From: Phycisphaerae bacterium
Lineage (GTDB): Bacteria > Planctomycetota > Phycisphaerae > UBA1845 > UTPLA1
NCBI GenBank assembly: GCA_035275405.1
Contig: DATEMU010000005.1
Span: forward strand, 62,001 to 126,000
Reading direction: 5' to 3'
Length of the DNA: 64,000 nucleotides
Shown here one piece after another: positions 24,701 to 40,197 of this stretch. How positions within the stretch are numbered: the stretch's first letter is position 1; each line of letters starts with the position of its first letter. Under the pieces are notes generated by a model, which was given only the letters and a program-made list of their open reading frames with translations, was not told where the DNA came from and made no database searches. Both the position numbers and the translations under genes were made by a program.

Positions 24701-25380
24701 GGGCCATCCGCCAGGCCGAAAAAGAAGGACGGGTGGCCGGCCCCCGGGAGGCAAGGCTGTGCATCGTCGCCTTGACGGCCAACGCCATTAAAGGCGACCG
24801 TGAGCGCTGTCTGGAAGCGGGCATGGACGACTACCTCAGCAAACCGCTGAATCCGGAAAAGCTGATTCGACTCATTGAACACAACTTATCGCGCGCCGTC
24901 GGGCCCATCGAAAAACCTTCCACTCCCTGTACGGGTTCATCGATTTCGGAAATGGACGGTCCTGCGGATGACGGAGGTCCCCCGTTCAACATGGAGTTCC
25001 TCCTCAAGCAATGGGGCGGCGATCAAGCACTCGTCAAAATGCTAATCGCCAAATTCCGCACCCAATCAAAGGCCGACCTGGAGAAGTTGGAACAAAGCAT
25101 TACGGCTGGAGACATGGATGAAGCCGCCCGGCTGGCGCACGGCTTCAAGGGGGCCGCCGGCTACCTCGCAGCAGAAAAACTGCGCCGCTTGGCCGCGAAT
25201 CTGGAAACGCAATGCCGCAACAAGGACTTGGCCGGCATCGCTGCGGGCGCGGCGGCCGTTCGGGCCGAGTTGGGACGCTGGATGGATTACAACCCCAAAC
25301 GAACGATAGAACTGGACCCCGGAGCCGCCGACGCGCCGAACTCGGAGAACAACCGTGAATATTTTGATTCTCGACGATGA
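21763..25380 (+). CDS. Hybrid sensor histidine kinase with two receivers and Hpt
   Basis: A 1205-aa membrane sensor kinase. Two N-terminal helices (about residues 15-60) are followed by a linker coil, PAS (about 90-205), GAF (about 215-370), PAS (about 375-500), HisKA with SHELRTPLNG (His near 527), HATPase_c (NAIKFTE, DSGIGI, GTGLGL), a first receiver (VVDDNE; phospho-Asp near 818 in VDMQMPG), a second receiver (AEDHP; Asp near 967 in MDCQMPQ) and a C-terminal Hpt domain (AHGFKGAAG, His near 1126). All phosphorelay residues look intact. It overlaps the next gene by 26 bp, so the HD-GYP regulator is very likely its partner. Confidence 0.93.
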   Translation: MKPVRFDRRFLVETLGIVGLVLVVIVFLLPQIAPGLEGAAYALLLSGALMFGGLVWSLGRSRTRAEILAREMTSDLALAKEQAESALRETEALRTTLDEHAIVSVADAKGRITAINHTFCRISGYSREELIGQDHRILNSGHHPRSFWVEMWKTIQSGRPWHGEVCNRAKDGSFYWVDCIIAPFKGADGKMAKYVSIRSDITERKRAEQSLLERTRLATLEAEIGTSLARGGTLCQTLQLCCETITRYLDAAFTRIWTLNEREDVLELQASAGQYTHLDGPHSRVPVGKFKIGKIAEDRRPHLTNRVVGDPRVGDQDWAKREGMVAFAGYPLILENRIVGVVAMFARHNLSDLTLQTLGSLANYIAGGIERKRAEQALRESEQRFRTIADTVPQLLWTTDPAGNADYSNARWLEYSGLSPEQTRGWGWKAVMHPDDVPSIMETWGRCLQTGAPYSAECRFKRGSDGAYRWFLIRGVAVRDPNGAIAQWIGACTDIEDQKRAAEVVAARIEAENANRAKSDFLATMSHELRTPLNGVIGMAELLMSTNLDAKQRRYAWLAKSSGDALLALINDILDFSKIEAGKIELEHADFDLCYSVECVTASFASRAQGKGLELVVGVHPKVPALVRGDTGRLQQILTNLIGNAIKFTECGQVVVRAALERENDGHVDVCFNVQDSGIGIAPDRIPRLFNTFSQVDSSTTRKYGGTGLGLVISKRLVELMGGRIGVVSEESKGSTFWFTVPLEKQRTDGSQIRAICEEVRNQRVLVVDDNEISREILHEQLTGWGMEHESVPGGREALAALRAAAAEDRKFGLVIVDMQMPGMNGWELAKEVKADSALQETILVLIAPAHDEPDAQHLHAGGFAGYASKPLRPSQLLDTITDSLNSSKAPTAPVSVTTAVTATRRIKQPPVALTDARILLAEDHPISQEVAATILRQAGYQCDVVGNGKEALEAVTRHRYDLVLMDCQMPQMDGFTATRAIRQAEKEGRVAGPREARLCIVALTANAIKGDRERCLEAGMDDYLSKPLNPEKLIRLIEHNLSRAVGPIEKPSTPCTGSSISEMDGPADDGGPPFNMEFLLKQWGGDQALVKMLIAKFRTQSKADLEKLEQSITAGDMDEAARLAHGFKGAAGYLAAEKLRRLAANLETQCRNKDLAGIAAGAAAVRAELGRWMDYNPKRTIELDPGAADAPNSENNREYFDSRR

Positions 25381-26371
25381 CGCCATCTGCCTGGAGGCGC
25401 TGAATCAGGCGTTGATCCGGGCGGGTCATGACGTGCAGTTTGCGCGCGATGGCCACGAGGCACTGGAAATCCTCCGCGAAGGCCATGTCCGTCTGGTGAT
25501 CTCCGACTGGATCATGCCCGGCATGGACGGTCTGGAACTTTGCCGCCGGATTCGCCGCGAAGAGTTCCCTGCCTACGTCTATTTCATCCTGCTGACTTCG
25601 CGGGACGGGACCGAGTGCATTGTCGAAGGCCTGTCCGCCGGGGCCGACGAATTCCTGACCAAGCCTTTCCATCCGGCGGAGTTGAGCGTTCGGCTGCGGG
25701 CGGCGGAACGCATCCTCGCGCTCGAAACGCGCGACGTGGCCATCTTCGCCTTGGCGCGGCTGGCCGAATCCCGCGATCCGGAGACGGGTGCACATTTAGA
25801 CCGCGTTCGGATGTACTCCCGGATCATCGCCCAGCATTTCCTGGAGAGTTCCAATAGCCCGGAGCCGATCGATGCGGAATTTGTGCGGCTGATTTACTTG
25901 ACCAGCCCGTTGCACGACATCGGCAAGGTGGGTATCCCCGACTGCGTCTTGCTCAAGGCCGGCCGCCTCAGCAATCGCGAATTCGAGATCATGAAAACGC
26001 ACGTCACGATCGGCGCCGAGACCCTGGGTGCGGCCCGGCGACAGTTTCCCGGAGTTCGCTTTCTGCAAATGGCTCAGGAAATCGCTCTCACTCATCACGA
26101 GCGGTTTAACGGAAGCGGGTATCCCTCCGGGCTGAAGGGCAAGCGAATACCGCTGAGCGGGCGGATCGTGGCCTTGGCCGATGTTTATGACGCCCTGACT
26201 TCCAAGCGGGTCTATAAGCAGGCGTTCGCCCACGATGTGGCGCGCGGCATCATTCTTGAAGAGAGCGGGCAGCACTTCGATCCGGATGTCATCAAGGCCT
26301 TTGTCGAGAACGAAGTGGCGTTTGTCGCGGTGCGCGAGCGCTTCGCCGAGCCGGAGCTGGTAGCGGTTTGA
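25355..26371 (+). CDS. Response regulator with HD-GYP phosphodiesterase domain
   Basis: A 338-aa protein starting at GTG 25355 inside the end of the kinase gene. The receiver domain (residues 1-120) has LDDD and phospho-Asp51 in SDWIMPG. An HD-GYP domain follows with LHDIGKVGIPD (near residue 187) and HHERFNGSGYP, the signature of cyclic di-GMP phosphodiesterases. The metal ligands appear present. It is probably cytoplasmic and lowers c-di-GMP when phosphorylated by the upstream kinase. Overlapping translation fits an operon. Confidence 0.93.
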   Translation: MNILILDDDAICLEALNQALIRAGHDVQFARDGHEALEILREGHVRLVISDWIMPGMDGLELCRRIRREEFPAYVYFILLTSRDGTECIVEGLSAGADEFLTKPFHPAELSVRLRAAERILALETRDVAIFALARLAESRDPETGAHLDRVRMYSRIIAQHFLESSNSPEPIDAEFVRLIYLTSPLHDIGKVGIPDCVLLKAGRLSNREFEIMKTHVTIGAETLGAARRQFPGVRFLQMAQEIALTHHERFNGSGYPSGLKGKRIPLSGRIVALADVYDALTSKRVYKQAFAHDVARGIILEESGQHFDPDVIKAFVENEVAFVAVRERFAEPELVAV

Positions 26372-26433
26372 GCCCTGCCAGGGGACGTCAGTATCCGAAG
26401 TCCAAGGGCAAAAAATAGGTAAGTCGTGATTAC

Positions 26434-28125
26434 ATGAGCACCATCCTGATCGTCGATGACATGGAGATCTTCAGGGAGCCGATTGCGTCCACTCTTCAAT
26501 CAAGGGGCTATTCCACGGTCTGTGCGTCCAACGGCAGGGAGGCTATGGAGGCCCTGGAAACACATCCAGCCGACCTGATTCTACTCGACGTCTCCATGCC
26601 CATCATGGACGGCCTGGCCTGCCTGAAGGCGATCCGCGGAAACGCCAGGCTACGGGATCTGCCCGTGATCCTGCTTACGGCCTCGTCCGACCGCGACCAC
26701 GTCACCCAGGCGGCCAAACTGGGCGTCAGCGGCTACCTTCTGAAATCGCAATTCTGTCTCAAAGAGATGTTGGCCCGCGTCGAGCAGTATGTCGGCCCAT
26801 CTCATGGCAACGCCGGTCCAGTCAAACCAGCGACAGACTCCGCTTTAATACCACTGACTTCCGCTGCGGATCTGAACCTCCGAGAGCGGGTCTCGAAGGA
26901 AATTGTCTGGGAACGCATCGGGCAGGAACTTCATTTGGAGGCCGTTCCCCCGGCCTTGCACCACGTATTGGCGATGATCAATAGCAGCGAGACCAGCATG
27001 GACGACATCGCCCAGGCGATGCGGATGGACCAGGCCTTGAGCCTGCGCGTCATGCAGGTCGCCAATTCCAGCTTTTACAACAACGGCAAGCCTGTAAAGA
27101 ACCTGTCCGAAGTCGCCCAGCGGATCGGGCTGTCGGGGCTCCGGATTATCGTGATGACGGCCACCGCGATGAGCCAGTTCAGCGACGTGGCCAAGGGCGG
27201 CCTGATTCCTCAGCGCTTTTGGGAACATTCTTTGGCGACGGCCATGCTGTCGCAATTGCTCGCGCCGACTTTGGCCAAGGAGGCTGCGGAGCATTATTTT
27301 CTGGCCGGGCTGCTCCACGATATTGGCCGCGTTGCGCTGTGCAGGTTGTTTCCCGAACTGCATCACTCCGCGCTCAAGGCGGCGGCGGATTCCCGGGCAG
27401 ACCTGATGACCGTGGAAATCGAATGTTTCGGCGTCACGCATGCAGACGTGACTCGACGATTGTTGCAGCAGTGGAAGCTGCCCAACGAACTGGTCGAGGC
27501 CGCGTCACTGCATCATTCGTCGGTCGCACACATCAAATCAATCGCCTGCGAACCGCGCGCCGCATTCGTGGTGGCCCTGGCGAATGCCCTGGCGCATGCC
27601 ATGGCGTGCGGGGACAGCGGCGGAATGTCGCTTGTCCCATTCCATCAGTACGCACAGGCCCTTGGACTGGACGGTGAATCGATCGAGCGCCTGGCCCGTC
27701 AAGGGGTTAAGGACGCTCAAGACACCGAATTACTTTGTGCGTCTCGATTCGCCGGACGGATTCGTAGCCCCCTGCATCAGGAACTGGCCCAACGCGAAAA
27801 GGTCGCGCCAAAGGTGGCGGTACTGGCCAACCCCGCGCACGGTGACCCGCTGACGCTGTTTCTGCAACAGTTGGATTGGTGGGACCAAACGAACCCTCGC
27901 GGAGTCGTCGTTTATGCCGCCGAATCGAATGAGGCTTCCCAACTAGTCTCCGAGCTTGAACTCTTGGACGCGAAGTTTGAAAGTCCCATCCCGGCCATCG
28001 TCGCGTCACAAGACGGAAAGGCGTCGCTGCCGCCGAATCTTGCGGTGAGACGTTCGATTTCGAACGTGGCGATCCCCGGACGATACACGGACCTTATGAG
28101 TGCGATCACCAAGCTTTGCACTTGA
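26434..28125 (+). CDS. Response regulator with HDOD domain and unusual C-terminus
   Basis: A 563-aa protein. The receiver (residues 1-120) has VDDM and Asp52 in LLDVSMP. An HDOD domain (about 160-370) shows VPPALHHVLAMI, IAQAMRMDQALSLRVMQVANS and the degenerate HD pair HDIGRVAL. The last 120 residues (VAVLANPAHGDP to the end) are not recognised and may be a degenerate receiver or a partner-binding module. HDOD proteins relay signals without HD hydrolase activity, often in motility or secretion. It lies 62 bp after the HD-GYP gene. It is the last host gene before the genomic island. Confidence 0.9.
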   Translation: MSTILIVDDMEIFREPIASTLQSRGYSTVCASNGREAMEALETHPADLILLDVSMPIMDGLACLKAIRGNARLRDLPVILLTASSDRDHVTQAAKLGVSGYLLKSQFCLKEMLARVEQYVGPSHGNAGPVKPATDSALIPLTSAADLNLRERVSKEIVWERIGQELHLEAVPPALHHVLAMINSSETSMDDIAQAMRMDQALSLRVMQVANSSFYNNGKPVKNLSEVAQRIGLSGLRIIVMTATAMSQFSDVAKGGLIPQRFWEHSLATAMLSQLLAPTLAKEAAEHYFLAGLLHDIGRVALCRLFPELHHSALKAAADSRADLMTVEIECFGVTHADVTRRLLQQWKLPNELVEAASLHHSSVAHIKSIACEPRAAFVVALANALAHAMACGDSGGMSLVPFHQYAQALGLDGESIERLARQGVKDAQDTELLCASRFAGRIRSPLHQELAQREKVAPKVAVLANPAHGDPLTLFLQQLDWWDQTNPRGVVVYAAESNEASQLVSELELLDAKFESPIPAIVASQDGKASLPPNLAVRRSISNVAIPGRYTDLMSAITKLCT

Positions 28126-28642: not shown

Positions 28643-28669
28643 GTGGCTTCAATTCCCGAGGAGCGGACG

Positions 28670-29548
28670 ATGACGGTTTCTGCGGCGGCAGGCACCGAAT
28701 CGGATTGCGTCCCCCGCGTCAGCAGGGGCGAACTCGGCCGAAGGCTGGCGGAGGCACGCTCAGCATTGGCCTCCTGCCACTTGTGCGAGTGGCGATGCGG
28801 GATTGATCGCACCAGAGGAGAACATGCCCCCTGTCGCCTGGGCTCCGACACCTATTCGTTCCGGCGATACCTCAGCCTGACGGACGAGATCGAAATCGTT
28901 CCCACGCTTCGTGTTTATCTCGCAGGTTGCAACTTTCGATGTCGGTTTTGCGATACGGGTCCGACCTGCTTCGAGCCAAGCGCGGGCGAGAAAATCGATG
29001 CCCGGAAACTCGCTGATGAATTGACCGCGGCGGTGCGGCAAGGCGCCAAAACCATAGACCTGCTCGGCGGTGAGCCCAGTCTTCATCCGCACACAATCCT
29101 CGAAATCGCCGCGTCTGCCGAGAAACCGCTCCCACTTGTCCTCGATACGAATCTCTACATGTCACCGCAGGTCATCGATTGGTTCGACGGCGTTTTTACC
29201 TGCGTGATCGGCGATTTTAAGTTTGGAAACGACGACTGCGCGCAGAAGCTTGCGGGCGTGCCGCGTTACTGGGAGGTCGTTACACGAAACCTCCTGCATT
29301 TTGCCTCCAATCGAACTCGCTTGATCGTGCGCCACCTCCTGATGCCCGGTCATGTAGAATGCTGTTTCAGACCGGTCGCAGATTGGATAGCAGCCAACCT
29401 GTCAGAAGTGAAATTCCATTTGGCTTGTGGCTATGTCCCCTGTTGGAAGGCGCAGTCCGATCCGACCCTCGGTCGCATGATGGGACGAGACGAACAGCGG
29501 GAGGCCGAAGAATATCTTCGATCGCTTAACCTCAATTGGCATTCGTGA
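28670..29548 (+). CDS. Radical SAM enzyme, PflA-like, first gene of AAA/PilT operon
   Basis: A 292-aa radical SAM protein. ATG 28670 is chosen because GAGGAG lies 6 bases upstream. The [4Fe-4S]-SAM motif is CNFRCRFC, and the glycine motif is LLGGEPSLHP. An N-terminal cysteine group (CHLCEWRCG, then CRLG) precedes it, as in the PflA/PflX-like 'uncharacterised Fe-S protein' group, and suggests an extra cluster or a zinc site. These enzymes often activate partner proteins by forming glycyl radicals, but no glycyl-radical enzyme is present here. The substrate is therefore unknown and may be one of the small proteins of the operon. It lies 4 bp before the next gene. Confidence 0.9.
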   Translation: MTVSAAAGTESDCVPRVSRGELGRRLAEARSALASCHLCEWRCGIDRTRGEHAPCRLGSDTYSFRRYLSLTDEIEIVPTLRVYLAGCNFRCRFCDTGPTCFEPSAGEKIDARKLADELTAAVRQGAKTIDLLGGEPSLHPHTILEIAASAEKPLPLVLDTNLYMSPQVIDWFDGVFTCVIGDFKFGNDDCAQKLAGVPRYWEVVTRNLLHFASNRTRLIVRHLLMPGHVECCFRPVADWIAANLSEVKFHLACGYVPCWKAQSDPTLGRMMGRDEQREAEEYLRSLNLNWHS

Positions 29549-29552
29549 AACG

Positions 29553-29750
29553 ATGAGCTATTCAAAACCACAAGAGACCATGTCGGCGACGGGACTCGAC
29601 GTCACGATCACCATCGGCGCGGACGGTCGAATGTACTTTCACGATTTGACTCCGGAATTAGTGCCCATTGCCGCGGCCATTTGCCCCAACAATGCCGAAG
29701 TAATGGCGCGACAGGTCGCGATCAAGGAAAGTGAGCGGAACAACGCATGA
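29553..29750 (+). CDS. Small 65-aa protein of the AAA/PilT operon
   Basis: Not a recognised family. Its core LDVTITIGADGRMYFHDL looks like a beta-hairpin and resembles the start of the DUF2997 protein encoded 2.3 kb downstream (FEITITRAGKVKVHV). The rest is a short helix with one Cys (AAAICPNN). Its stop overlaps the AAA gene start (ATGA), so it is translated together with that gene. Position and size suggest a small adaptor or substrate of the system. Likely real because of tight coupling on both sides. Confidence 0.65.
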   Translation: MSYSKPQETMSATGLDVTITIGADGRMYFHDLTPELVPIAAAICPNNAEVMARQVAIKESERNNA

Positions 29751-31333
29751 GCCAAGAGCCGGCGAAGGAAAAGAACCGGGTTCAACCTTCCGTCTTTGCG
29801 GAGCTGGAGGTGCTGATCCGCGCCCGCTATCCCATCATCTACGTGGTTTCGTGGGAAGAGCGGCGCGTCGAGCTGCATCTGAAGGAGATCGCCCAACGCC
29901 GCAACAAGGAGTTGTATCTTTGGTCGGTTACCACCGGCCTCTTGAAGACCGGGGCGCTTCCCAAAGGGACCAAAGGGCTTGCCGATCCCATTGAAGCGTT
30001 GGACTCCGTGATTGAGCACAAGGAGCCCGCGATTTATCTCTTCAAGGACTTTCACCCGTTCATGCGGTCACGGGATTCGAATGTGGCCGTGGTCCGCAAA
30101 CTCCGCGAGGTCGCGGTAGCCCTGAGCGACAGCTACAAAACACTCGTCGTCACGTCGCCTGTGCTGGAGATTGCCTCGGAGCTGGAGAAGGATGTCTCGG
30201 TTCTCGACTACCCACTTCCCGATATTCGAGATCTCCACGTGTTGCTTCAGAGGATCTGCAAGGATGTGTCCGAGCACACCAAGCTCAAGATCGAACTTAA
30301 GGAGGGCGAGTTAGAAAAAGTCTTACAGGCCGCGCTGGGATTGACGTTGCAGGAGGCCGAGAACGTCTTTGCCAAGACGATCGTTACCGACGGAAGGCTG
30401 TCGGCCGATGCCGTTTCCGTCGTCTTCTCTGAAAAGCAACAGATCATTCGCAAGAGTGGACTGCTTGAATATTACGATACGCAAACCAACGCGGCAGATA
30501 TCGGCGGCCTGGACGTGCTGAAGGAGTGGTTGGGGAAGCGATCGCTGGCTTTTTCGGATGATGCCCGGAAATTCGGGCTTCCGGCGCCCAAGGGAGTCTT
30601 GCTCGTCGGCGTCCAAGGATGCGGCAAGAGCCTCTGCGCGAAGGCCGTGAGCAAGTTGTGGGACATGCCACTGCTGCGCTTTGACATGGGCCGAATGTTT
30701 GCAAGCCTAGTCGGCTCATCGGAAGAAAACGTCCGCCGGGCGATCAACGTCGCCGAGAGCGTCGCGCCGTGCGTCCTTTGGGCCGACGAAATCGATAAGG
30801 CCTTCGCCGGCTCACAGGGATCGGCCAACACCGACGGCGGCACGACGGCGCGGGTGATGAGCACGTTTTTGACGTGGCTTAACGAGAAGCAAAAGCCCGT
30901 CTTTGTCATGGCGACGGCGAACAACATCGCTCAACTTCCACCCGAACTGCTGCGCAAGGGACGGCTCGACGAGATTTTCTTCGTGGATTTACCGACTCTC
31001 AGCGAGCGGAAGCAGGTGTTCCACATTCACCTCACCAAGCGGCGGCGTGACGTAACGAAATTTGATCTGGCGGCGTTGGCCGAGGCGGCCGACGGATTCA
31101 GCGGGGCGGAGATCGAAGAGGCGATCATCAGCGCGCTGTATGACGTCTTTTACGCCAAAAAAGAGTTAGAAACGGGGGACATCGTCAAGAGCATCCGCGA
31201 GACCGTTCCGCTATCCCGGACCATGAGCGAGAACATTGCAGCGCTGCGGGAGTGGGCTTCGAACCGCGCGCGTTACGCCTCGCGGCGTGACGACGACGCG
31301 GTAGGTGTCACGCGACGTAAATTGGAAATGTAA
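29747..31333 (+). CDS. Ycf46-type AAA+ ATPase
   Basis: A 528-aa AAA+ protein like Ycf46 of cyanobacteria and algal plastids. The N-terminal half (residues about 1-230) resembles a degenerate P-loop domain ([22 protein letters not shown]). A classical AAA domain follows: [12 protein letters not shown], Walker A GVQGCGKS (near 288), Walker [11 protein letters not shown] (near 343), sensor-1 MATANN, and arginine fingers near [11 protein letters not shown]. This is the Cdc48/FtsH-like branch, usually hexameric and protein-remodelling. In cyanobacteria Ycf46 genes often neighbour DUF1257 and DUF2997 genes, as here. The catalytic residues look intact. Confidence 0.9.
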
Positions 31334-31380
31334 GCAAGACCTACGAACTCTTGCACCAACGGGAAAAAAGGAGATCAACC

Positions 31381-31836
31381 ATGGGCGCGATTCTTGTCCT
31401 GACGCCGCTCGTCATATCCGCCTGGCCGGCGGTCGCCGCCGCCATTATGGGTGCTGCCGCAAGCATGGGCTTTGCCGTATCGGCTCCCACCGTGGAGCAG
31501 GAAGAAGAGGCGACTCGAACCAACAAGATCGAGACGGAGATCGAGAACAGCGAGGTGGTTGCCGAGCAGATGAACCGCGGCGAAAAGGTCGTCATCACGA
31601 AGGACGACATCACCGTGGAGTTCGGCCGCGACAACCGCGGCGCCTGCACCGTCTGTGTCAGCGGAAAGGGCCATTCCGAAAAGGAGTTGCACAAGATCGG
31701 CGAAGAGATCGCCGGCCGCGTCGTGCAACAGTACGCCTATCACAAGCTGATGACCGAACTGAAGAAGCGAAATTACAGCGTCGTCGATGAGAAAGTCATG
31801 CAAGACCAATCGATTCAGGTTCGTATTCGACTGTAG
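31381..31836 (+). CDS. DUF1257 (Ycf35-like) protein
   Basis: A 151-aa protein; ATG 31381 follows GGAG by 7 bases. The first 30 residues (VLTPLVISAWPAVAAAIMGAA) are hydrophobic and may be a membrane anchor or packed helix. The conserved part has the DUF1257 pattern: ITVEFGRDNRGACTV, then GEEIAGRVVQQYAYHKLMTELK and a terminal beta-strand IQVRIRL. Ycf35/DUF1257 proteins are small, uncharacterised, and conserved beside Ycf46 in cyanobacteria. The link is from memory of the families. Confidence 0.8.
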   Translation: MGAILVLTPLVISAWPAVAAAIMGAAASMGFAVSAPTVEQEEEATRTNKIETEIENSEVVAEQMNRGEKVVITKDDITVEFGRDNRGACTVCVSGKGHSEKELHKIGEEIAGRVVQQYAYHKLMTELKKRNYSVVDEKVMQDQSIQVRIRL

Positions 31837-31871
31837 AAAGTAAAGCAGGAATCCCCCAAGGAGATCATTTC

Positions 31872-32075
31872 ATGGAACGGCCTGAATTCGAAATCACGAT
31901 CACCCGCGCGGGCAAAGTAAAGGTCCATGTCAAGGGCGTGAAGGGCCAGCGATGCGTCGAACTGGCGGACTTGATCAAGGAGATCGTCGGCCGCGAGGAT
32001 GAACGGAAACTGACGGATGACTTTTACGCGCTCGATGGCAAGGTGCGTATCGACGTTAAGACCAGGACGTCTTGA
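31872..32075 (+). CDS. DUF2997 protein
   Basis: A 67-aa protein with the DUF2997 pattern: two beta-strands (FEITITRAGKVKVHV), KGVKGQRC with a conserved Cys, then a helix (VELADLIKEIVG). AAGGAG lies before the ATG. DUF2997 proteins are a little-studied small family commonly encoded with Ycf35/DUF1257 proteins. The Cys could be a modification or attachment point, for example for the radical SAM enzyme. This last idea is inference. Confidence 0.82.
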   Translation: MERPEFEITITRAGKVKVHVKGVKGQRCVELADLIKEIVGREDERKLTDDFYALDGKVRIDVKTRTS

Positions 32076-32140
32076 TTCCACGCTGATGCGGGCAAGTGGG
32101 ACACGATGGCTGTCGTGGGGAGCCTTCGGGAGTACGGATC

Positions 32141-33172
32141 GTGCAGTGTATCAATTGCGGCTTTGAGAACATCCCGGGCCTGCAGGTCTGCGCCCGCTGC
32201 CAAAGCTCGCTGCTGCTAGGTGAGATCGACGTGACGCCGCCGCGCGCGTCCGCCATTCAGTTGGGAACCGGTCTGCGGCGATTCTGGAACGCCTTTCGTA
32301 ACAACATCCCCAACCTCGCCGATCTACTGCCCCGCTGGCGCCCGACTGTCTATCATCCCATCGCCCTGAGAAGCGTCGTGCGGTGCGCGATCCCCGGTCT
32401 CGCACAGATCTGGCACGGTCAAAAGGCGCTTGGGCGCACAATTCTCATAGTTTGGTTATCGCTGCTGCTCAGCGCGATACTCTCACTGGGCAGCGGGTTT
32501 ACGCAGTTTCTATTCTCCGCCGCATGCGTCGTCCACGCGGTCACCGTACTTCTCGTGCTCGGCGCGAATCTGAACTACGAGCGGCTTCCTATCCGGTTGC
32601 TAACCGGCCTCGCGTTCTTTTTCGGCATCTGGTATTTCATTTATGCGCCGATCGGCTGGCTCGGAACGCGCTTTTATCAACCCCTGCCTTTGGACGGAAT
32701 GGCGCGACCAGATGTTCTCCTGAACGGTGACGTGATTCTTCACGAAGGCCCTTGGCGAAGGCCCGATCGGTTCGAACGCGGAGAGATTGTCGTGTATCGC
32801 GTCGATTGGCAGATGGGCGGGTACGCGAACTTCTATTTCGCGGCGGTCGAAGGGTTTAACGTGGATCGCATCATCGGGCTGCCCGGCGACCGTGTGCAGG
32901 CAATTGACGGCAAGCTCCTCGTTAACGGCGAGCCGTTGTCCGCCGAACACTATCCACTGGCCGGTCTGCGGTCAGTCTGGGGCAACGGCTTGGATGTTGC
33001 GTTGGGCCTAGGGGAGTACCTGGTCATTCCTTCGACGCTGAGGATGCCGGGGTATCAACCCCAGATTCCCGCGGACCAATTGACTAACTTCGTACGGGTC
33101 GCGCCAGTGGATATTCTGGGGCGCGTGGCGCTACGCATTCGTCCTTATTCTCGATTCGGAAGCGTGAAATAG
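32141..33172 (+). CDS. Zinc-ribbon membrane protein with inactive S26 signal-peptidase fold
   Basis: A 343-aa protein starting at GTG 32141, with GGGAG 8 bases upstream. It opens with a zinc ribbon (CINCGFEN, then CARC), followed by four or so transmembrane helices (residues about 85-185) and a C-terminal domain that aligns with type I signal peptidases: LLNGDVILHEG, RGEIVVYRV, VDRIIGLPGDRV and LLVNGEPL. The catalytic Ser (in SMxPT) is Gly in DGMARP, and the general-base Lys before RxxGLPGD is Asp. Peptidase activity is therefore not expected; it may bind tails of partner proteins at the membrane. Encoded in the middle of the AAA/PilT operon. Confidence 0.82.
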   Translation: MQCINCGFENIPGLQVCARCQSSLLLGEIDVTPPRASAIQLGTGLRRFWNAFRNNIPNLADLLPRWRPTVYHPIALRSVVRCAIPGLAQIWHGQKALGRTILIVWLSLLLSAILSLGSGFTQFLFSAACVVHAVTVLLVLGANLNYERLPIRLLTGLAFFFGIWYFIYAPIGWLGTRFYQPLPLDGMARPDVLLNGDVILHEGPWRRPDRFERGEIVVYRVDWQMGGYANFYFAAVEGFNVDRIIGLPGDRVQAIDGKLLVNGEPLSAEHYPLAGLRSVWGNGLDVALGLGEYLVIPSTLRMPGYQPQIPADQLTNFVRVAPVDILGRVALRIRPYSRFGSVK

Positions 33173-33182
33173 GCGGAACAGG

Positions 33183-33968
33183 ATGCCCGGTCGATTTGCC
33201 AACTTGGAGTTTGACGACGGCGAGAAGCGCGTTACCAAGGATTCCGCCGTCGCAACCAAGAAATACGACGCGGACACCTACCTCGCGCAGGCGAACGAGG
33301 AATATCGCTGGGGACAGTTTGAGCAGGCGCTGCGGCTCTACACGCGCAGTCTTGAGCGGAGCCGCACTATGATTCCGGCGTGGGTCGGTCAGGTTCAAAT
33401 GCTCGTGCAACTCGACGAGTGTCACGAAGCCCGCGTCTGGTCTGACAAAGCCCTGGAGCTATTTCGCAACAACGGCGAGCTGCTCGCCGCCAAATCGCAG
33501 GCATGCATGCGACTCAAGGACAAGCAGGCCGCACTCGCGTGCAGCGATGCCTCCTTGCAGGTGCCCGGCAGTTCGCCGTGGCGTTGGACCGCCCGGGGCG
33601 AAGTGCTGCTCGCCACCGGGCAGAAGCACGCCGAGGACTGTTTCCAAAAGGCGCTGCTGGAACCGCACACCGATTGGTTTGACCGGGTCATCGTCGGCCG
33701 AATATACCTCTATTATCGCCGCGCGAGCAATGCCCTGTATTACATCCAAGCCGCCATGGAATTGGCCGCTGCCAACGGTTACGTCTGGTTCGAAAAAGGG
33801 AACTGCGAGCGCGAACTCGGCCTGGCCTCGGCGGCGGCCGGCAGCTATGAAACCTGCCTGGAACTTCGACCCGATTACCGAGAAGCCCGGCTCGCGCTGG
33901 ATGCACTTGCCACGGGCTCTTCAATGATGCAGCGTCTGCGGTCTTTTTTTAGCCTCCGGAGGCGCTGA
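33183..33968 (+). CDS. TPR-repeat protein of the AAA/PilT operon
   Basis: A 261-aa protein with about five tetratricopeptide-like repeats from residue 35 to 245 (for example AQANEEYRWGQFEQALRLYT and WFEKGNCERELGLASAAAGSYETCLEL). There is no signal peptide or membrane helix. TPR repeats usually scaffold multiprotein complexes. It starts 10 bp after the signal-peptidase-like gene and overlaps the PilT-like gene by 1 bp (TGATG), so the three are probably translated together. Confidence 0.85.
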   Translation: MPGRFANLEFDDGEKRVTKDSAVATKKYDADTYLAQANEEYRWGQFEQALRLYTRSLERSRTMIPAWVGQVQMLVQLDECHEARVWSDKALELFRNNGELLAAKSQACMRLKDKQAALACSDASLQVPGSSPWRWTARGEVLLATGQKHAEDCFQKALLEPHTDWFDRVIVGRIYLYYRRASNALYYIQAAMELAAANGYVWFEKGNCERELGLASAAAGSYETCLELRPDYREARLALDALATGSSMMQRLRSFFSLRRR

Positions 33969-35020
33969 TGCTCATCGATTCCTTGCTTCGTCACGGCCGG
34001 AAGCACAACGCGAGCGACATCCACATCATTGCTGGAATGCCACCCATCTTCCGCGTGGACGGCGAAATCGTGCTGGCCAAGGGCGACATGATGAACGCCG
34101 AGGCGGTTCGCTCTTTGGTCTATGAGTGCCTGAATGACGATCAAAAACGAACGCTGGAGCAGACATGGCAGCTTTGCTTTTCCAGGATGTTCGGCGAGAC
34201 CGATCGGTCGCGCATTACGGTTTATTACCGTAACGGATGCCCGGAATTATCCATTCGCTTAAGCGAGCCGCACATCGCTTCACGCGAGGAACTGGGCCTA
34301 CCAGCCCTCGTTGACGATCTGGCCCGCAAGCCCAATGGCCTCATCATCCTGACGGGGCCGACCGGCGTGGGGAAGACGACGACCTTTCATTATCTCATTG
34401 ACCGCATTAACCAGGAATTCCGGTGCAAGATCGTCACCATCGAAGACCCCGTGGAGTTCACGCATACCGCCAAGCGGGCGATTGTGATTCAGCAGGAAGT
34501 GTTGACGGATACCAAGAGTTTCTCTACGGCGCTGGTACACGTATTGCGGCAAGACCCGGACGTCATCGCCGTCGGGGAGATGCGCGATCAGGAGACGATC
34601 TACACGGCGCTGATGGCCGCCGAGACCGGACACCTGGTTATCGCGACGCTGCATACACCGGATGCGGTGCAATCCGTACAGCGCATCGTGTCAGTGTTTC
34701 CGTCCGGCCAGCAGGATGAAATCCGCTACATGCTCGCGAACACAATACAGGCGGTCATTTCTCAACAGCTATTGCCGCGTGCCCAGGGAGGCCGGCGGGT
34801 GCTGTGTTGCGAAGTTCTCGTAGGAACAAACGGCGTCCGGCACAACATTCGTGAAAATACGATTCACAAGATGTATAGCGACCTGCAGGCGGGCCGCAAA
34901 TTCGGGATGATCACGATGGATCACGCGTTACTTGATCTCTACCAGCGCGGAGACATTACTTACGACTCGGCAGTGTCCATGGCCCGCGACCCGACGACGA
35001 TTCAGAAGCGAACCGCATGA
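33968..35020 (+). CDS. PilT-type secretion/retraction ATPase
   Basis: A 350-aa ATPase of the PilT family (hexameric motors that retract type IV pili). The N-terminal domain has ASDIHIIAGMPP. Walker A is GPTGVGKTT (near 125-133), the Asp box IVTIEDPVEF, Walker B-like DPDVIAVGEMRD, and the His box TGHLVIATLHT. The C-terminal GVRHNIREN aligns with the AIRNLIRE motif needed for retraction, suggesting a true PilT type. No pilin or pilus biogenesis gene is encoded in the island, so it may act on another complex or on host pili. Last gene of the operon. Confidence 0.92.
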   Translation: MLIDSLLRHGRKHNASDIHIIAGMPPIFRVDGEIVLAKGDMMNAEAVRSLVYECLNDDQKRTLEQTWQLCFSRMFGETDRSRITVYYRNGCPELSIRLSEPHIASREELGLPALVDDLARKPNGLIILTGPTGVGKTTTFHYLIDRINQEFRCKIVTIEDPVEFTHTAKRAIVIQQEVLTDTKSFSTALVHVLRQDPDVIAVGEMRDQETIYTALMAAETGHLVIATLHTPDAVQSVQRIVSVFPSGQQDEIRYMLANTIQAVISQQLLPRAQGGRRVLCCEVLVGTNGVRHNIRENTIHKMYSDLQAGRKFGMITMDHALLDLYQRGDITYDSAVSMARDPTTIQKRTA

Positions 35021-35486: not shown

Positions 35487-38342
35487 TTACTTGCCCGATT
35501 GACCTGCTCCGTGGTTCGGCCCAGTCCCAGGCCTGGTTGGCGGGTCAACTATCAGGCCGCGGGCGCGCAGCTCCCCAACGTTGAATCCGCGTGAGGTAGC
35601 GTAGTCCGGCGTGAGCAGGATGCCGACCCGGCTACGGATCTTCTCGTGCTTGCCCTTGTGGGTCACGTCGAAGGTCGTCTCTGTCGGAACCAAGTCGCTG
35701 CCCACTTCGGTGATGGTAAATTGGACGGCCTCCACTTCGTTGTTCACGTCTGCGGAGAGCGCGTCATGGTCAGCCACGAAACCCTCTGGCGGCGCGACCG
35801 TCGCCGTAACGCCCCAGTCACCGACCGATTGGAACACAAACGGATAAGACTGTTCGGTCTGGTCCCACACGACATATTCCGGCTCTATGATCAAGAGTTC
35901 CGAACCGGTGCGAATGGTGTACTTGGCCGGGACCTTTTTGCCGTCCCCCGTCTGGACCAGTTGCAGGTACTTCCGCATGGTGATCGTGTCGGGGTTATTG
36001 TCCGTCGAGCACTGGAAGTCGCTGGCAGAGACGCCCAAGTACAGTTCGTCGCCATCGTCGTTTGGCGGCAGGCCATCCGGATCGTACTTGCCGATGACGA
36101 TGTAATCACCGGCGGGCAGCACGAGGCGCAACGAGCCGTCGGCAGCAGTCATCCCGCAGGCGGCCGAAGGGCAGGTCTCGTAGATCGCGGGGTAGTTCTG
36201 CCACGACACGCCCAGCTCGCGGGCGCATGATCCTTCGGACTTGTCGAAGACGCAGACCTGCATCCCGGCGATACCCAGCTTGGTGGTGACGGGACGCGCG
36301 CCCGTGCCGACCGTGTGCTGATCGACCTGGACCAGCAGGGTGGCGCAGCCGCATACGGTCACGGTAATCGGCAACTCGGCAGTCGTCGTGTGCCCCGCGG
36401 CATCCCTAGTGGTGAAGGTCACGGTGGTGGTCTCGCCCGCCGGGAACAGCGCCGGAGCATCGTTGGTCACCACTAGGTTCGGATCACAATCATCTTCGGC
36501 CGTAGCAGTCGGCAGCGTGACCGCGACCTGGCAAGAGCCGTGACTTTCCACCGTTAGAGGAGTGGTATCCACAGTGAGTGTCGGCGCCAGCGTGTCGACA
36601 ACGTTTACCGTACGCGTCACCTGTACCGCAGCGTTGCCCTGGGAGTCCGTCTTGTCGTAAAGGACGTCATAATGGCCCATCGTGTTGGCGTCGACGAAGT
36701 CTCCGCCGATGTCCGCCGGGAGCGGCCCGTCGCAATCGTCTTCACTCGCTGCCCCCGCCTCGGCGTATGTATCGACGTGGCACTCCAGAGTGATCTCCGC
36801 CGGCCCGTTCAGCGTGAGCACCGGCGCGTCGTTGCGCACAGTGAGGACAGCCGGCGTGCTCGTGGTGACACCGCAGTCGCACTCGTCCACCACGCAATCG
36901 TATTGACCGCCGTCCGCGATGCTTGTGACTGTGAAGGAATACGAGTCGCTCGTTGCGCCGCTGATCGGCAGCCCATTCTTGCGCCATTGGTACGTGATTT
37001 CGCCGCCGATGCGGGCGCTGGCTGCGACGCTGAAGGAGACCATCTCGCCCGGGCAGCGCGTGGCATCGACCGGCTGCTGGGTGATATCCGGCCCGTGAGG
37101 ATGCACAGTCAGTGTCGCCGCTGAACTGGTGATCAGCGAGCCACAGGCGTTGGTTATTACCACGTCGTACGAGCCGCCATCGTCCAGGCTGTCCGGCGCA
37201 AGCGGGAACGTGTCGCTGGTCGCGCCGGAGATGTCTATGCCCTCCCTGCGCCACTGATACGACAGCGGTTCGGTCCCCGAAGCGACGACGCTGAACGCCC
37301 CCGGCGTTCCACCGATGCAGAGCTGCGTGCTTGCGGGCGGACTGCTGATGATGGGCTGCGACTCCGTGACGGTCACTTGGGTCGTGCAGGCGACCGGTGG
37401 GGCCGAGCCGTCGCTCACCTGGACTTCGACCGTGTGCACGCCGACGGAATATGCCCGAGAGAGGGCCAACGTCGCCGTTGTTGCAAGGCTGCCACCGTCG
37501 GGCACGTTGTCGGTCTGGACCACGAAGGTGTCAACCAGCCAGGTGACCGTCAGCGGATCGCCATCGGCGTCGGCAATGGGGCTGGTCAGCTCGATCGTAG
37601 CGCCGGCCGACGAGGTGCATTCGGCGGTGGCAGTTTCCGGACAATTGACCGTCGGCGGGTTGTTCACGACCGCCTTGCAAATGAACGCGTCGAAGGTCCC
37701 GACGGCGCCCGCCTTGATTGTCTGGAACGCCCCCGGCGTTACGGGGAAGCTCGTGGAATTCGTCCAACCTGTTACGTAGGCATCGCCGGCCGCGTCGAGC
37801 GCCACGCCATAGCCGGCATCACCCCCGGTGGTCGTTGCGCCTCCGCCGCCGATGAAACTGGAGAAGAGCAAGCTGCTCCCGTTGCGATTGAGTTTCGTCA
37901 GGAATGCGTCTTCCCCGCCGGCGGGAGTGCCCTTCGTCGTCTGCACCGCCAGACCGGCGATCGGGAAATTGCCCGAACTCGTCGTGCCGGCAACCACCGC
38001 GTTGCCGTGCGCGTCGACCGCGATGTCCTCACCGAAATCGTTGCCGGACGCGCCTAAATACGTGGAGTAGGCGACGCTTCCGTCGGGCCGGAACTTCACC
38101 ACCAGCGCGTTGGAGAAGCCGCCCGCGGTCGTTTGGTAGGCCCCCGCCGTAACGGGAAAATCGCTGGCAGTGCTGCTGGATGTGAGGTAAATGTTGTCGG
38201 CGCTATCGACCGCGAGTGCGCCGTCGCGATCTCCCCCTTCGGAGCCGTTCGACCCTCCGTAAAACGTCGCAAAATCCAGTCCCGTCCCCGCCGCGTTGAT
38301 CTTCGCGATGTAGAGGTCGGCCCCAACGGAATGACCGACCGG
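35487..38342 (-). pseudogene. Giant SBBP/Ig-like surface protein, C-terminal part
   Basis: Continues in frame after TAA 38343-38345 from the fragment upstream; the next initiation codon is ATG 38102. Early codons read another SBBP propeller repeat (LYIAKINAAGTG, then YSTYLGASGNDFGEDIAVDAHGN), which clearly belongs to the same gene. Then follow Ig/HYR-like repeats with paired tryptophans and cysteines (SYQWRREGIDISGA, TYQWRKNGLPISG) and a lower-complexity C-terminal domain about 200 residues long. It would be an extracellular adhesin-like protein. Whether the C-terminal part is made depends on readthrough or restart; without a signal peptide it would not be exported. Confidence 0.72.
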
Positions 38343-39878
38343 TTACACCGCGTTGACGACGGGGAGCCCTGCACCGGTGGAAGTGGCCAAGGACTCGACC
38401 ACCGCGCAACCCAGCGAGTCGATGGCGATACATTGCGCGCCCTGATCACCGGAACTCGTGTTCGTGGGACCCAGGGTGACGCAATACTTGAGGTACCTGC
38501 CTTGCGGCTCGATCTTGCAGACCCGTACGCCCGCCGTCGCGCCCAACTGGGTGATCGTCTGGATCTGCCCCTGCCCGCTCCCAATGCCGTTGTTGGCGGG
38601 CAATCCGTTGCCGCAGGCGTAGGCGTTGAAGTCCGAGTCCACTGCGATGCCACGATTGAACTCTACATCTAAGCTGTTGATGGTTTGCATGAACGTCGAG
38701 TAGATCAGCCCAGAGCCGTCCGGAGTGAGACGCGTGACGAAACCAGCTCCACCGGGGTTCAGCGTGGTGTCGAAAGCCCCGGGCGTCACCGGGAAATCAC
38801 TGCTGGCGGTTGTGCCGCAGACGAACGCGCTTCCGTCGTCGGCCACTGCAATGTTCGGCCGCTGTTGCGTGTTGGTGCCGCCCTCGCCCAACGATCCGCC
38901 GAGATAGGTCGAAAAAATGAGCGCGGTGCCATCGGCGCTGAGCTTGGCAACGAAGAGATCGCTAGTGCCCTCCCGCGAGGTGTCGTATGCGCCGGGTGTG
39001 ACCGGAAAGTCCGTGGATACGGTGTGGCCGACGACACAGGCCTCCCCCGATCCATTTACGGCAATGCTCCAACCGCGCTCCGTGGAGGCTCCACCGAGAT
39101 ACGTGCCGTAAACGAGCGTTGGATCTATGACCAACTGCAGCGTTGGGTCGTAATCACCGATCGAGAAACCCACTCGGTCCGGTCCGCGCAGCTCAAATGC
39201 GCCGGCGATTTCGCGCCGTCGGCCATCGATCTCCTGATACAACACGGGCTTGTGTTGTCGCACCTCGCCTTCGCCGACATGCAGCACCAGGTCGCCGCCC
39301 TCATCAATCTCGAGCCCGTCGGCGCCTTCGAACACGAGCGTGATAACGGATGGATCGGCCTGCGGCGAAACCACGAAATCGAATTCGAGTTGGCGCTGAT
39401 TGCCATAGTGAATCAGGTCGATTCCGCAATAGACGTCGTGATAGCGCACCTTCCCGTACGTGGAGATATTTGTGCGCCATTGCGCCGGGTCGCTCCCGCG
39501 GAAGTAGTTGACTTTTCCCAGCAGCTCGTCGAGGCCCGATATCGCCGGGTGCGGATCAGCGCCTTCCAATTTCATGCGCAGCACGGCCGACGCCATGGTC
39601 TCGTCGCCGTCCGGCGCAGCCCCCGGGGCGAGTCGAAAGACCATCTCATCAGGCGTCAGGAAGAGTGCGTAGCCCGGTCCGCGCGCCAGATAGGCCACCG
39701 CGCAGTCCGTCTGTCCCTCGTTCAACTCAAAGTGCAGGGGGACGCGGTGGTGGTTACCAACGCCCGACACTTTGCCTGACCCATCGGAGGGACCGAAAGT
39801 GTCCGCGCCTGCGAAGCCGCCCGTGCAGGTGATGGTGAGGCCGATCGCCACTATCGCACTGGTCAAAGACTGTTTCAT
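38343..39878 (-). pseudogene. Giant SBBP surface protein, N-terminal part before in-frame TAA
   Basis: The first 511 codons of a surface protein. ATG 39878 begins a signal peptide (MKQSLTSAIVAIGLTITC); GGAGAG precedes it. After about 60 residues a region resembling the secreted DUF7948-type head follows (HFELNEGQTDCAVAYLARGPG), then SBBP beta-propeller repeats (DLFVAKLSADGTALIFSTYLGG and others). It ends at TAA 38343-38345 inside a repeat, although the sequence after it carries on in frame. The full gene would encode about 1460 residues. Could be a real nonsense mutation or an assembly error (CAA to TAA). Confidence 0.72.
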
Positions 39879-40197
39879 GGGCTCTCTCCGATTGTCAGGG
39901 TCCTGATTGATGGGTCGCGGCGCCACGCGGCGGCCGCTTGGCAAACCGTCCGCTCTCTCCATAGTGCAAACCAATTCGCTGGATTACGCAGTTCATGCAA
40001 AGTTTTTTTCGTCCGTTGAGCGCGCGGAGGGTCCCTTGACCGCGCACGCTCCCTTTGATACGGAGTCGCTCCGACCGTTTGAGAGGATCGCCTGGACGGG
40101 CGCAGATGGTGACTGGCGTGAGACCTTGCCCGTCTCATCCCGCTCCCATCGACGAAATACGATTAACGTCAACCCTAGCGATGTGGCTGCCGTATTA

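What the first reader, a model, noticed from the sequence alone, without database searches (positions are those of the whole stretch)
28670..35020. Eight-gene Ycf46 / DUF1257 / DUF2997 / PilT cassette: candidate undescribed system
Tightly spaced or overlapping genes on one strand encode a radical SAM enzyme, a 65-aa protein, a Ycf46-type AAA ATPase, DUF1257 and DUF2997 proteins, a zinc-ribbon membrane protein with a dead signal-peptidase fold, a TPR scaffold and a PilT-type ATPase. Established knowledge: Ycf46, Ycf35 (DUF1257) and DUF2997 genes are often neighbours in cyanobacteria and poorly understood. Inference: here they form an island-borne complex with two ATPase motors, a membrane partner and a radical SAM modifying enzyme, perhaps a stress, defence or envelope system.
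Basis: partly seen in the sequence, partly recalled or inferred. Interest (0 to 1): 0.85.

Follow-up and report, generated by a model that had tools for sequence, protein, structure and literature searches.

The report
Conserved eight-gene AAA/PilT membrane system
Eight tightly packed bacterial genes found here recur in the same order in at least 29 other Planctomycetota and Verrucomicrobiota genomes, so they are one inherited unit; they look like an undescribed membrane machine with two ATP-driven motors that handles, but does not cut, exported or membrane proteins.

Summary
All eight genes lie at 28643-35020 with gaps of at most about 50 nt or small overlaps. The same order A-B-C-D-E-F-G-H occurs in 29 other genomes in Planctomycetota and Verrucomicrobiota, with unrelated flanks. 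Cassette-type D and full-length F occur together in about 12 of 294 phylum genomes and nowhere else. The PilT gene belongs to a cassette-only clade, apart from the other PilT-family paralogs of the same genomes. The Ycf46-type AAA is the hub of modules: C-D-E; a zinc-ribbon membrane protein (F or a simpler form); G-H; A-B. Many relatives add a pseudo-rhomboid directly upstream of A, and Verrucomicrobiota head the operon with an ECF sigma factor. F has a signal-peptidase fold (Z 11.5 to LepB and SipA) without the Ser/Lys dyad. Best explanation: an inner-membrane protein-remodelling or extraction machine. A tandem AAA with DUF1257/DUF2997 is anchored by F; non-cutting 'protease' folds bind substrate; PilT is the second motor; radical SAM enzyme A works with B. 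The unit is near certain; the mechanism is inferred (about 0.4). Defence is not supported, and no literature found describes the cassette.

The parts
28670..29548 (+). A: radical SAM enzyme, PflA-activase-like core with an N-terminal CX2CX3C...C Cys set, C190 and C231-C232
   Evidence: Pfam Radical_SAM 3e-15; invariant C36 C39 C43 C55 C87 C91 C94 C190 C231 C232 in 20 homologs; nearest PDB match PFL-activating enzyme 1e-11. An in-frame GTG at 28643 is also possible
29553..29750 (+). B: 65-aa protein with an invariant DGR turn; partner of A
   Evidence: Homologs between A and C in the A+ cassettes; A and B both absent from variant cassettes L117, L126, L149; weak profile likeness to DUF2997 (hhalign prob 57%)
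29747..31333 (+). C: Ycf46-type AAA ATPase with a degenerate N-terminal half and an active AAA domain
   Evidence: Pfam AAA 9e-29 at 284-414; conserved Walker A GVQGCGKS and Walker B DE; N-terminal half aligns weakly and co-linearly with the AAA lid region (hhalign E 3.5e-4, prob 37%)
31381..31836 (+). D: DUF1257 (Ycf35) protein with a hydrophobic Ala-rich N-terminus in cassette members
   Evidence: DUF1257 4.5e-6; alignments; AlphaFold2 pLDDT 75, no clear PDB fold match
31872..32075 (+). E: DUF2997 protein, invariant G14 G22 G25 C28
   Evidence: DUF2997 3.6e-11; invariants; co-occurs with D next to C in 86 of 91 loci that have either
32141..33172 (+). F: N-terminal zinc ribbon, transmembrane helices, C-terminal type I signal-peptidase-like domain without catalytic Ser/Lys
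   Evidence: Peptidase_S26 2e-8; PDB profile hits SpsB 9.5e-12 and SipA 1e-7 with Ser and Lys columns not conserved; model pLDDT 84.6, Z 11.6 to LepB and 11.5 to SipA. ORF open from GTG 32096
33183..33968 (+). G: TPR protein
   Evidence: TPR_1 7.8e-8, TPR_8 2.5e-6; cassette position conserved
33968..35020 (+). H: PilT-family hexameric ATPase, cassette-specific clade
   Evidence: TIGR01420 398.6 bits, cut-off 319; motor motifs invariant in 21 homologs; tree separates cassette PilTs from the other paralogs

Best explanation
An inner-membrane protein-remodelling machine, probably for membrane or exported proteins under envelope stress. SHOWN: the eight genes are one conserved unit; F has a signal-peptidase fold without its catalytic dyad; H is an intact PilT-type motor of a cassette-only clade; C has one intact AAA site; A and B travel together; C-D-E with a zinc-ribbon membrane protein is a module also found without the rest. 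INFERRED: C hexamers (a likely pseudo-AAA plus an active AAA ring), with D and E as adaptors, dock on the cytosolic zinc ribbon of F. F's non-cutting S26 domain, and the pseudo-rhomboid present in many relatives, hold signal-peptide-like or transmembrane segments of clients. C and H supply force, H by the extraction stroke with which PilT pulls pilins from a fibre base, to take clients out of the membrane or out of a fibre. G scaffolds. The radical SAM enzyme A, with B as carrier or substrate, modifies or repairs one component.
For: Same gene order in 29 other genomes of two phyla and a permuted order C-D-G-E-F-H in a Chloroflexi-labelled, a Riflebacteria and an unplaced MAG. Cassette-type D and full-length F in the same roughly 12 of 294 genomes. 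Correlated divergence of A, C, D, F, G and H (0 of 2000 permutations as high in the five pairs tested). F fold and dead site, matching SipA, a non-catalytic signal-peptidase relative essential for pilus assembly (PMC4049620). A zinc-ribbon plus transmembrane protein beside core C-D-E in 6 non-cassette cellular loci against 1 of 98 loci with C alone. Pseudo-rhomboid directly upstream of A in 8 loci, plus a rhomboid match at that position in G127, a same-class genome. ECF sigma factor heading 14 Verrucomicrobiota loci. Derlin pseudo-rhomboids recruit Cdc48/p97 for extraction (PMC12615303), an analogy only.
Against: No interaction, localisation or phenotype was tested. The window cassette lacks the pseudo-rhomboid and the ECF sigma factor. 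The Derlin analogy rests on fold and lost catalysis, not on homology of the whole system. Some genomes carry C-G-H, A-B-C or D-E-F apart (L042/L114, L084/L095, L244), so not all parts need act together. D gave no known fold. The pseudo-AAA reading of C's N-terminal half is weak.
Confidence: 0.4

Rival explanations
1. A dedicated accessory system of type IV pili or type II-like pseudopili: H is a true retraction motor for one pilus type, F is a SipA-like pilin-binding chaperone, and C-D-E with A-B tune or mature the pilus.
For: H exceeds the PilT family cut-off with motor motifs intact. All 12 cassette genomes have several platform (T2SSF) and pilT-family genes. F is as close structurally to the pilus factor SipA as to signal peptidases.
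Against: No pilin, platform or PilB gene was recognised within the cassette, and none is among the commonest flank families. Core C-D-E occurs without H in Omnitrophota, Deltaproteobacteria, an archaeal MAG and phages.
Confidence: 0.25
2. A redox or metal stress system acting on Fe-S or other metalloproteins: C-D-E serve Fe-S client proteins, with A (radical SAM) in the place of the ferredoxin of cyanobacteria.
For: In cyanobacteria duf2997-ycf35-fed7 form a cluster and Fed7 protects against oxidative, metal and iron stress (PMC4284462); the Ycf46 gene slr0374 sits in a stress operon (PMC7496141). A carries an extra Cys set; E has an invariant Cys.
Against: Many core C-D-E loci have no A-type radical SAM neighbour. 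The radical SAM genes near C in giant-phage contigs and in Elusimicrobia are NrdG-type, not A. It does not explain F, G and H.
Confidence: 0.15
3. A radical SAM peptide-modification and export system, with B as the modified precursor and F/H as exporter.
For: The A-B pair is linked and B is small.
Against: B shows no conserved Cys and no variable core after a conserved leader, only a conserved DGR hairpin-like motif. No protease, SPASM domain or transporter gene is present. Variants without A and B keep F, G and H (L117, L126, L149).
Confidence: 0.07
4. Anti-phage defence.
For: Patchy distribution; AAA and radical SAM genes occur in known defence systems; core modules are in phages.
Against: Only generic superfamily-level PADLOC hits (IetA AAA, viperin radical SAM). 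Few of 112 flanking genes match defence families, scattered and without recurrence. ECF sigma and pilus-type components are not typical.
Confidence: 0.05
5. Chance neighbours, or a broken relic.
For: Split forms exist (L244, L042/L114).
Against: Fixed order in 29 other genomes with unrelated flanks, intact reading frames and correlated divergence.
Confidence: 0.01

Closest known systems
Cyanobacterial duf2997-ycf35-fed7 cluster and the Ycf46 stress operon
   Same: DUF2997 and DUF1257 proteins adjacent, Ycf46-type AAA in the same genomes; stress-linked (PMC4284462, PMC7496141)
   Different: No S26-like membrane protein, TPR, PilT, A or B reported in those clusters; Ycf46 is in another operon; function still unknown
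SipA, signal-peptidase-like pilus assembly factor (PDB 4n31)
   Same: Type I signal-peptidase fold without the catalytic dyad (Z 11.5, 132 residues, rmsd 3.6)
   Different: F adds a zinc ribbon and several transmembrane helices and belongs to no sortase pilus cluster
PilT/PilU type IV pilus retraction ATPases
   Same: H is over the TIGR01420 cut-off with all motor motifs
   Different: Cassette H is its own clade; no pilus genes recognised in the cassette
Derlin-Cdc48/p97 membrane-protein extraction (ERAD)
   Same: Pseudo-rhomboid (in relatives) with an AAA ATPase of the Cdc48/FtsH type
   Different: No ubiquitin; pseudo-rhomboid missing in the window; extra PilT and S26-like parts; analogy only
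Phage AAA-X-DUF1257-DUF2997 modules (e.g. Rhizobium phage RHph_I4, Aeromonas phage HJ05)
   Same: Homologous AAA, DUF1257 and DUF2997 in the same order
   Different: X is not a zinc-ribbon protein; no F, G, H, A or B; function unknown

Membership tests
PilT/PilU retraction ATPase family (H) | Family score over curated cut-off and intact Walker, Asp and His box motifs | tested here: met
   398.6 bits against 319.1; conserved GPTGxGKTT, TIEDPxE, GEMRD and TxHT motifs
PilT/PilU retraction ATPase family (H) | Works on a type IV pilus machine | not testable with these tools
   Cassette genomes have platform genes elsewhere; no physical link shown
Type I signal peptidase, S26 (F) | S26 fold | tested here: met
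   PDB profile hit 9.5e-12; Z 11.6 to 1t7d
Type I signal peptidase, S26 (F) | Catalytic Ser-Lys dyad | tested here: not met
   Neither residue conserved in the F alignment; F is not filed as a peptidase
Ycf46-type AAA (C) | Full-length match over both halves with an active AAA domain | tested here: met
   Homologs aligned over residues 15-528; phrog_8638 over 8-525, 521 bits. The cyanobacterial protein itself was not aligned
DUF1257/Ycf35 (D) | Match to the whole Pfam domain | tested here: inconclusive
   Only profile positions 62-102 of 103 match; N-terminal part divergent and hydrophobic
DUF2997 (E) | Full-domain Pfam match | tested here: met
   Positions 2-47 of 47, 43.2 bits
DUF2997 (B) | Profile homology to DUF2997 | tested here: inconclusive
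   hhalign prob 57%, 33 columns; no Pfam hit
Glycyl-radical activase/PflA family (A) | Radical SAM CX3CX2C motif | tested here: met
   C87 C91 C94 invariant
Glycyl-radical activase/PflA family (A) | Equivalog score and a glycyl-radical partner gene in the cassette | tested here: not met
   All NCBIfam activase models far below cut-off, best 33 against 131 bits; none of the eight genes matches a glycyl-radical enzyme family
Rhomboid protease (upstream gene in relatives) | Rhomboid domain with Ser-His dyad | tested here: not met
   PF01694 met, but Ser replaced in most copies and the helix-6 His absent; treated as pseudo-rhomboid
Anti-phage defence systems in PADLOC | Specific model match of core genes | tested here: not met
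   Only generic AAA and radical SAM hits
Derlin-Cdc48-like extraction system | Physical recruitment of the AAA by the pseudo-rhomboid and substrate extraction | not testable with these tools
   Analogy only

The most novel reading that the evidence does not exclude
A bacterial membrane-protein dislocation machine without ubiquitin: an AAA ring and a PilT ring working together through membrane-embedded pseudo-proteases (an S26-like protein and, in many relatives, a pseudo-rhomboid), under its own envelope-stress sigma factor in Verrucomicrobiota, with a radical SAM enzyme maturing one part.
Probability: 0.25. Interest if true: 0.92.

Novelty: categorically new. Interest (0 to 1): 0.7.

Why it matters
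Ycf46, Ycf35 (DUF1257) and DUF2997 have long been known from cyanobacteria and red-algal plastids without a mechanism. Finding them welded to a membrane protein with a dead protease fold, a PilT motor and a radical SAM pair, in fixed order across two phyla, gives them a concrete setting (the inner membrane) and testable partners. It would also be the first case known to me of a PilT-type motor working outside or beside pili together with a Cdc48-like AAA. The modular variants, including phage-borne cores, make it possible to dissect which part does what.

Tried and rejected
NrdG-like radical SAM genes beside C in giant-phage contigs and in Elusimicrobia first looked like A, but score as NrdG, so no link with A is claimed. 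Apparent fusions of C (L053, 1434 aa; L038, 782 aa) are long open frames in GC-rich DNA, not supported fusions; the C-terminal extensions in L057, L059, L060 and L062 match none of the cassette profiles. D structure: no PDB match with Foldseek E below 1e-3 and Z under 8, so no fold is claimed; one weak match to an unnamed viral protein (E 7e-5). Defence-island test: no recurring defence family (no matched control set). Sigma-70 promoters: none in the region; terminator-like sites at chance level, so operon limits rest on spacing and conservation. Mre11/Rad50-like genes beside D-E-C in an archaeal MAG were seen once and not used. Plasmid search with H found only distant PilTs. Literature: nothing describing the cassette; COG1313/PflX gave no papers.
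Full report
Observation. Eight ORFs on the + strand run from 28643/28670 to 35020 with gaps of at most about 50 nt or overlaps of 1-4 nt. B (65 aa) matches nothing in the libraries.

Conservation. The window is G000:C5:62001-126000. A scan of 294 genomes of the phylum with C, neighbourhood fetches, a named scan of 84,980 species genomes and iterative profiles built here show A-(B)-C-D-E-F-G-H in fixed order in 29 other genomes. These include Phycisphaerae, Pirellulales-type Planctomycetota and Verrucomicrobiota. L152 is the same contig as L046 and was not counted; one search lists 31 loci including the window. Where my profile missed B, a B-like ORF with a DGR-type hairpin motif is present between A and C on inspection. 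Three MAGs labelled Chloroflexi, Riflebacteria and 'bacterium' have C-D-G-E-F-H and lack both A and B. Searched independently over the same 294 genomes, cassette-type D (E below 1e-20) lies in 12 genomes (a further one is cut by a contig end). F matching from the start of its model, in full or truncated by assembly, lies in those same genomes and in no others. Pairwise divergences of the parts correlate (C-H 0.89, C-G 0.89, G-H 0.84, A-H 0.63, F-H 0.59; in the five pairs permuted, 0 of 2000 permutations as high). Flanking window genes recur at none of the other cassettes. So the eight genes are one selected unit, patchily distributed.

The PilT gene. The twelve cassette genomes carry 5-22 PilT-family matches each, GspE/PilB-like ones included. 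In a tree of 51 sequences all cassette H proteins, including those with the variant order in other phyla, form one group (SH-aLRT 94) apart from the other paralogs. The single 'paralog' inside it, L234, is the cassette H of G289. H keeps its motor motifs. It is a dedicated motor, not a stray pilus gene.

The membrane protein. F starts with a CX2C...CX2C zinc ribbon in most members and carries transmembrane helices. It ends in a type I signal-peptidase fold: profile hits to SpsB (9.5e-12) and SipA (1e-7); AlphaFold2 model pLDDT 84.6; Z 11.6 to E. coli signal peptidase and 11.5 to SipA. The catalytic Ser and Lys columns are not conserved. SipA, which also lacks the dyad, is essential for pilus polymerisation and is proposed to bind rather than cut (PMC4049620).

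A modular core. Near C, D and E occur together in 86 loci and singly in 5; another 118 loci have C without either. In six non-cassette cellular loci (Omnitrophota, Deltaproteobacteria/Myxococcota and others) the C-D-E core is accompanied by a zinc-ribbon protein with transmembrane segments by hydropathy. This happens in only 1 of 98 loci that have C but not D-E. F thus looks like an elaborated form of a general membrane partner of this core. Phages carry AAA-X-DUF1257-DUF2997 modules, annotated in PHROGs as unknown (phrog_8638, phrog_20456, phrog_23133).

Directly upstream of A in L039, L084, L088, L090, L092, L097, L102 and L104 lies a rhomboid-domain protein. In G127, of the window's own class, a rhomboid match lies at the same place. 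Across the eight aligned copies the catalytic Ser is replaced in most and the helix-6 His is absent. In Verrucomicrobiota an ECF sigma factor, often followed by a ~75-aa protein, heads the operon in 14 loci. The window lacks both beside its cassette; its two rhomboid genes lie on other contigs.

The radical SAM pair. A has an invariant CX2CX3C...C set before the radical SAM cluster, plus three more invariant Cys. Its nearest solved relatives are glycyl-radical activases, but it falls far below every NCBIfam equivalog cut-off. A and B are present or absent together in complete cassettes, so B is probably A's partner. B has an invariant DGR, no conserved Cys and a weak likeness to DUF2997. C's N-terminal half shows a weak, co-linear profile match to its own AAA lid region, which suggests a pseudo-AAA plus active AAA tandem.

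Mechanism. I commit to a membrane protein-remodelling or extraction machine (0.4). Shown: unit, folds, loss of catalytic residues, intact motors, module structure. Inferred: docking of C-D-E on F, force from C and H, client holding by the non-cutting folds, scaffolding by G, modification by A-B, and envelope-stress use. The Derlin-Cdc48 parallel (PMC12615303) is a likeness of working parts, not a membership claim. Rivals are a pilus accessory (0.25), a redox or metal system as in cyanobacteria (PMC4284462, PMC7496141; 0.15), a peptide-modification system (0.07) and defence (0.05).

Novelty. Each family is known; the system is not described in the literature searched (DUF1257: 3 papers, DUF2997: 2, none on such a cassette). 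The library holds open-licence papers only, so a description elsewhere cannot be excluded. I grade it categorically new as a system because no characterised system shares its plan; the C-D-E core itself was known as a gene neighbourhood of unknown function.

Noticed in passing
L039, L084, L088, L090, L092, L097, L102, L104 immediately upstream of A; G127:C1:2681932-2682342: Pseudo-rhomboid gene heading the cassette in many relatives; absent beside the window cassette
   Followed up: partly
L080, L081, L084, L087, L088, L089, L095, L096, L101, L103, L107, L110, L113, L140 upstream of the cassette or of C: ECF sigma factor, often followed by a ~75-aa protein ending in WW(K/R)RLF-like residues, possibly a reduced anti-sigma factor (inference)
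   Followed up: partly
L241 (Rhizobium phage RHph_I4), L243 (Aeromonas phage HJ05): Phage modules AAA - X - DUF1257 - DUF2997, all of unknown function; giant-phage-sized IMG/VR contigs L155, L156, L159 also carry C with D/E
   Followed up: partly
L128:7349-13729: In an archaeal MAG (Borrarchaeum) D-E-C is followed by Mre11-like phosphoesterase and Rad50/SbcC-like genes
   Followed up: no
G000:C15:76120-77544 (L002/L054): Second Ycf46-type AAA in the window's genome, 37% identical, without cassette genes around it
   Followed up: partly
window 21763-28125: Upstream run of signalling genes: PAS/GAF hybrid kinase with Hpt, HD-domain response regulator, HDOD response regulator; not conserved beside other cassettes
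   Followed up: partly
window 35487-39974: Downstream on the other strand: SBBP beta-propeller/Ig-repeat protein and a DUF7948 protein
   Followed up: no
L057, L059, L060, L062: AAA relatives of C with a shared ~150-aa C-terminal extension that matches none of the cassette profiles
   Followed up: partly
L244:10606-12461 and L037:9383-10981 (same genome G123): D-E-F and C lie on separate contigs, without A, G or H nearby: a split form of the cassette
   Followed up: partly
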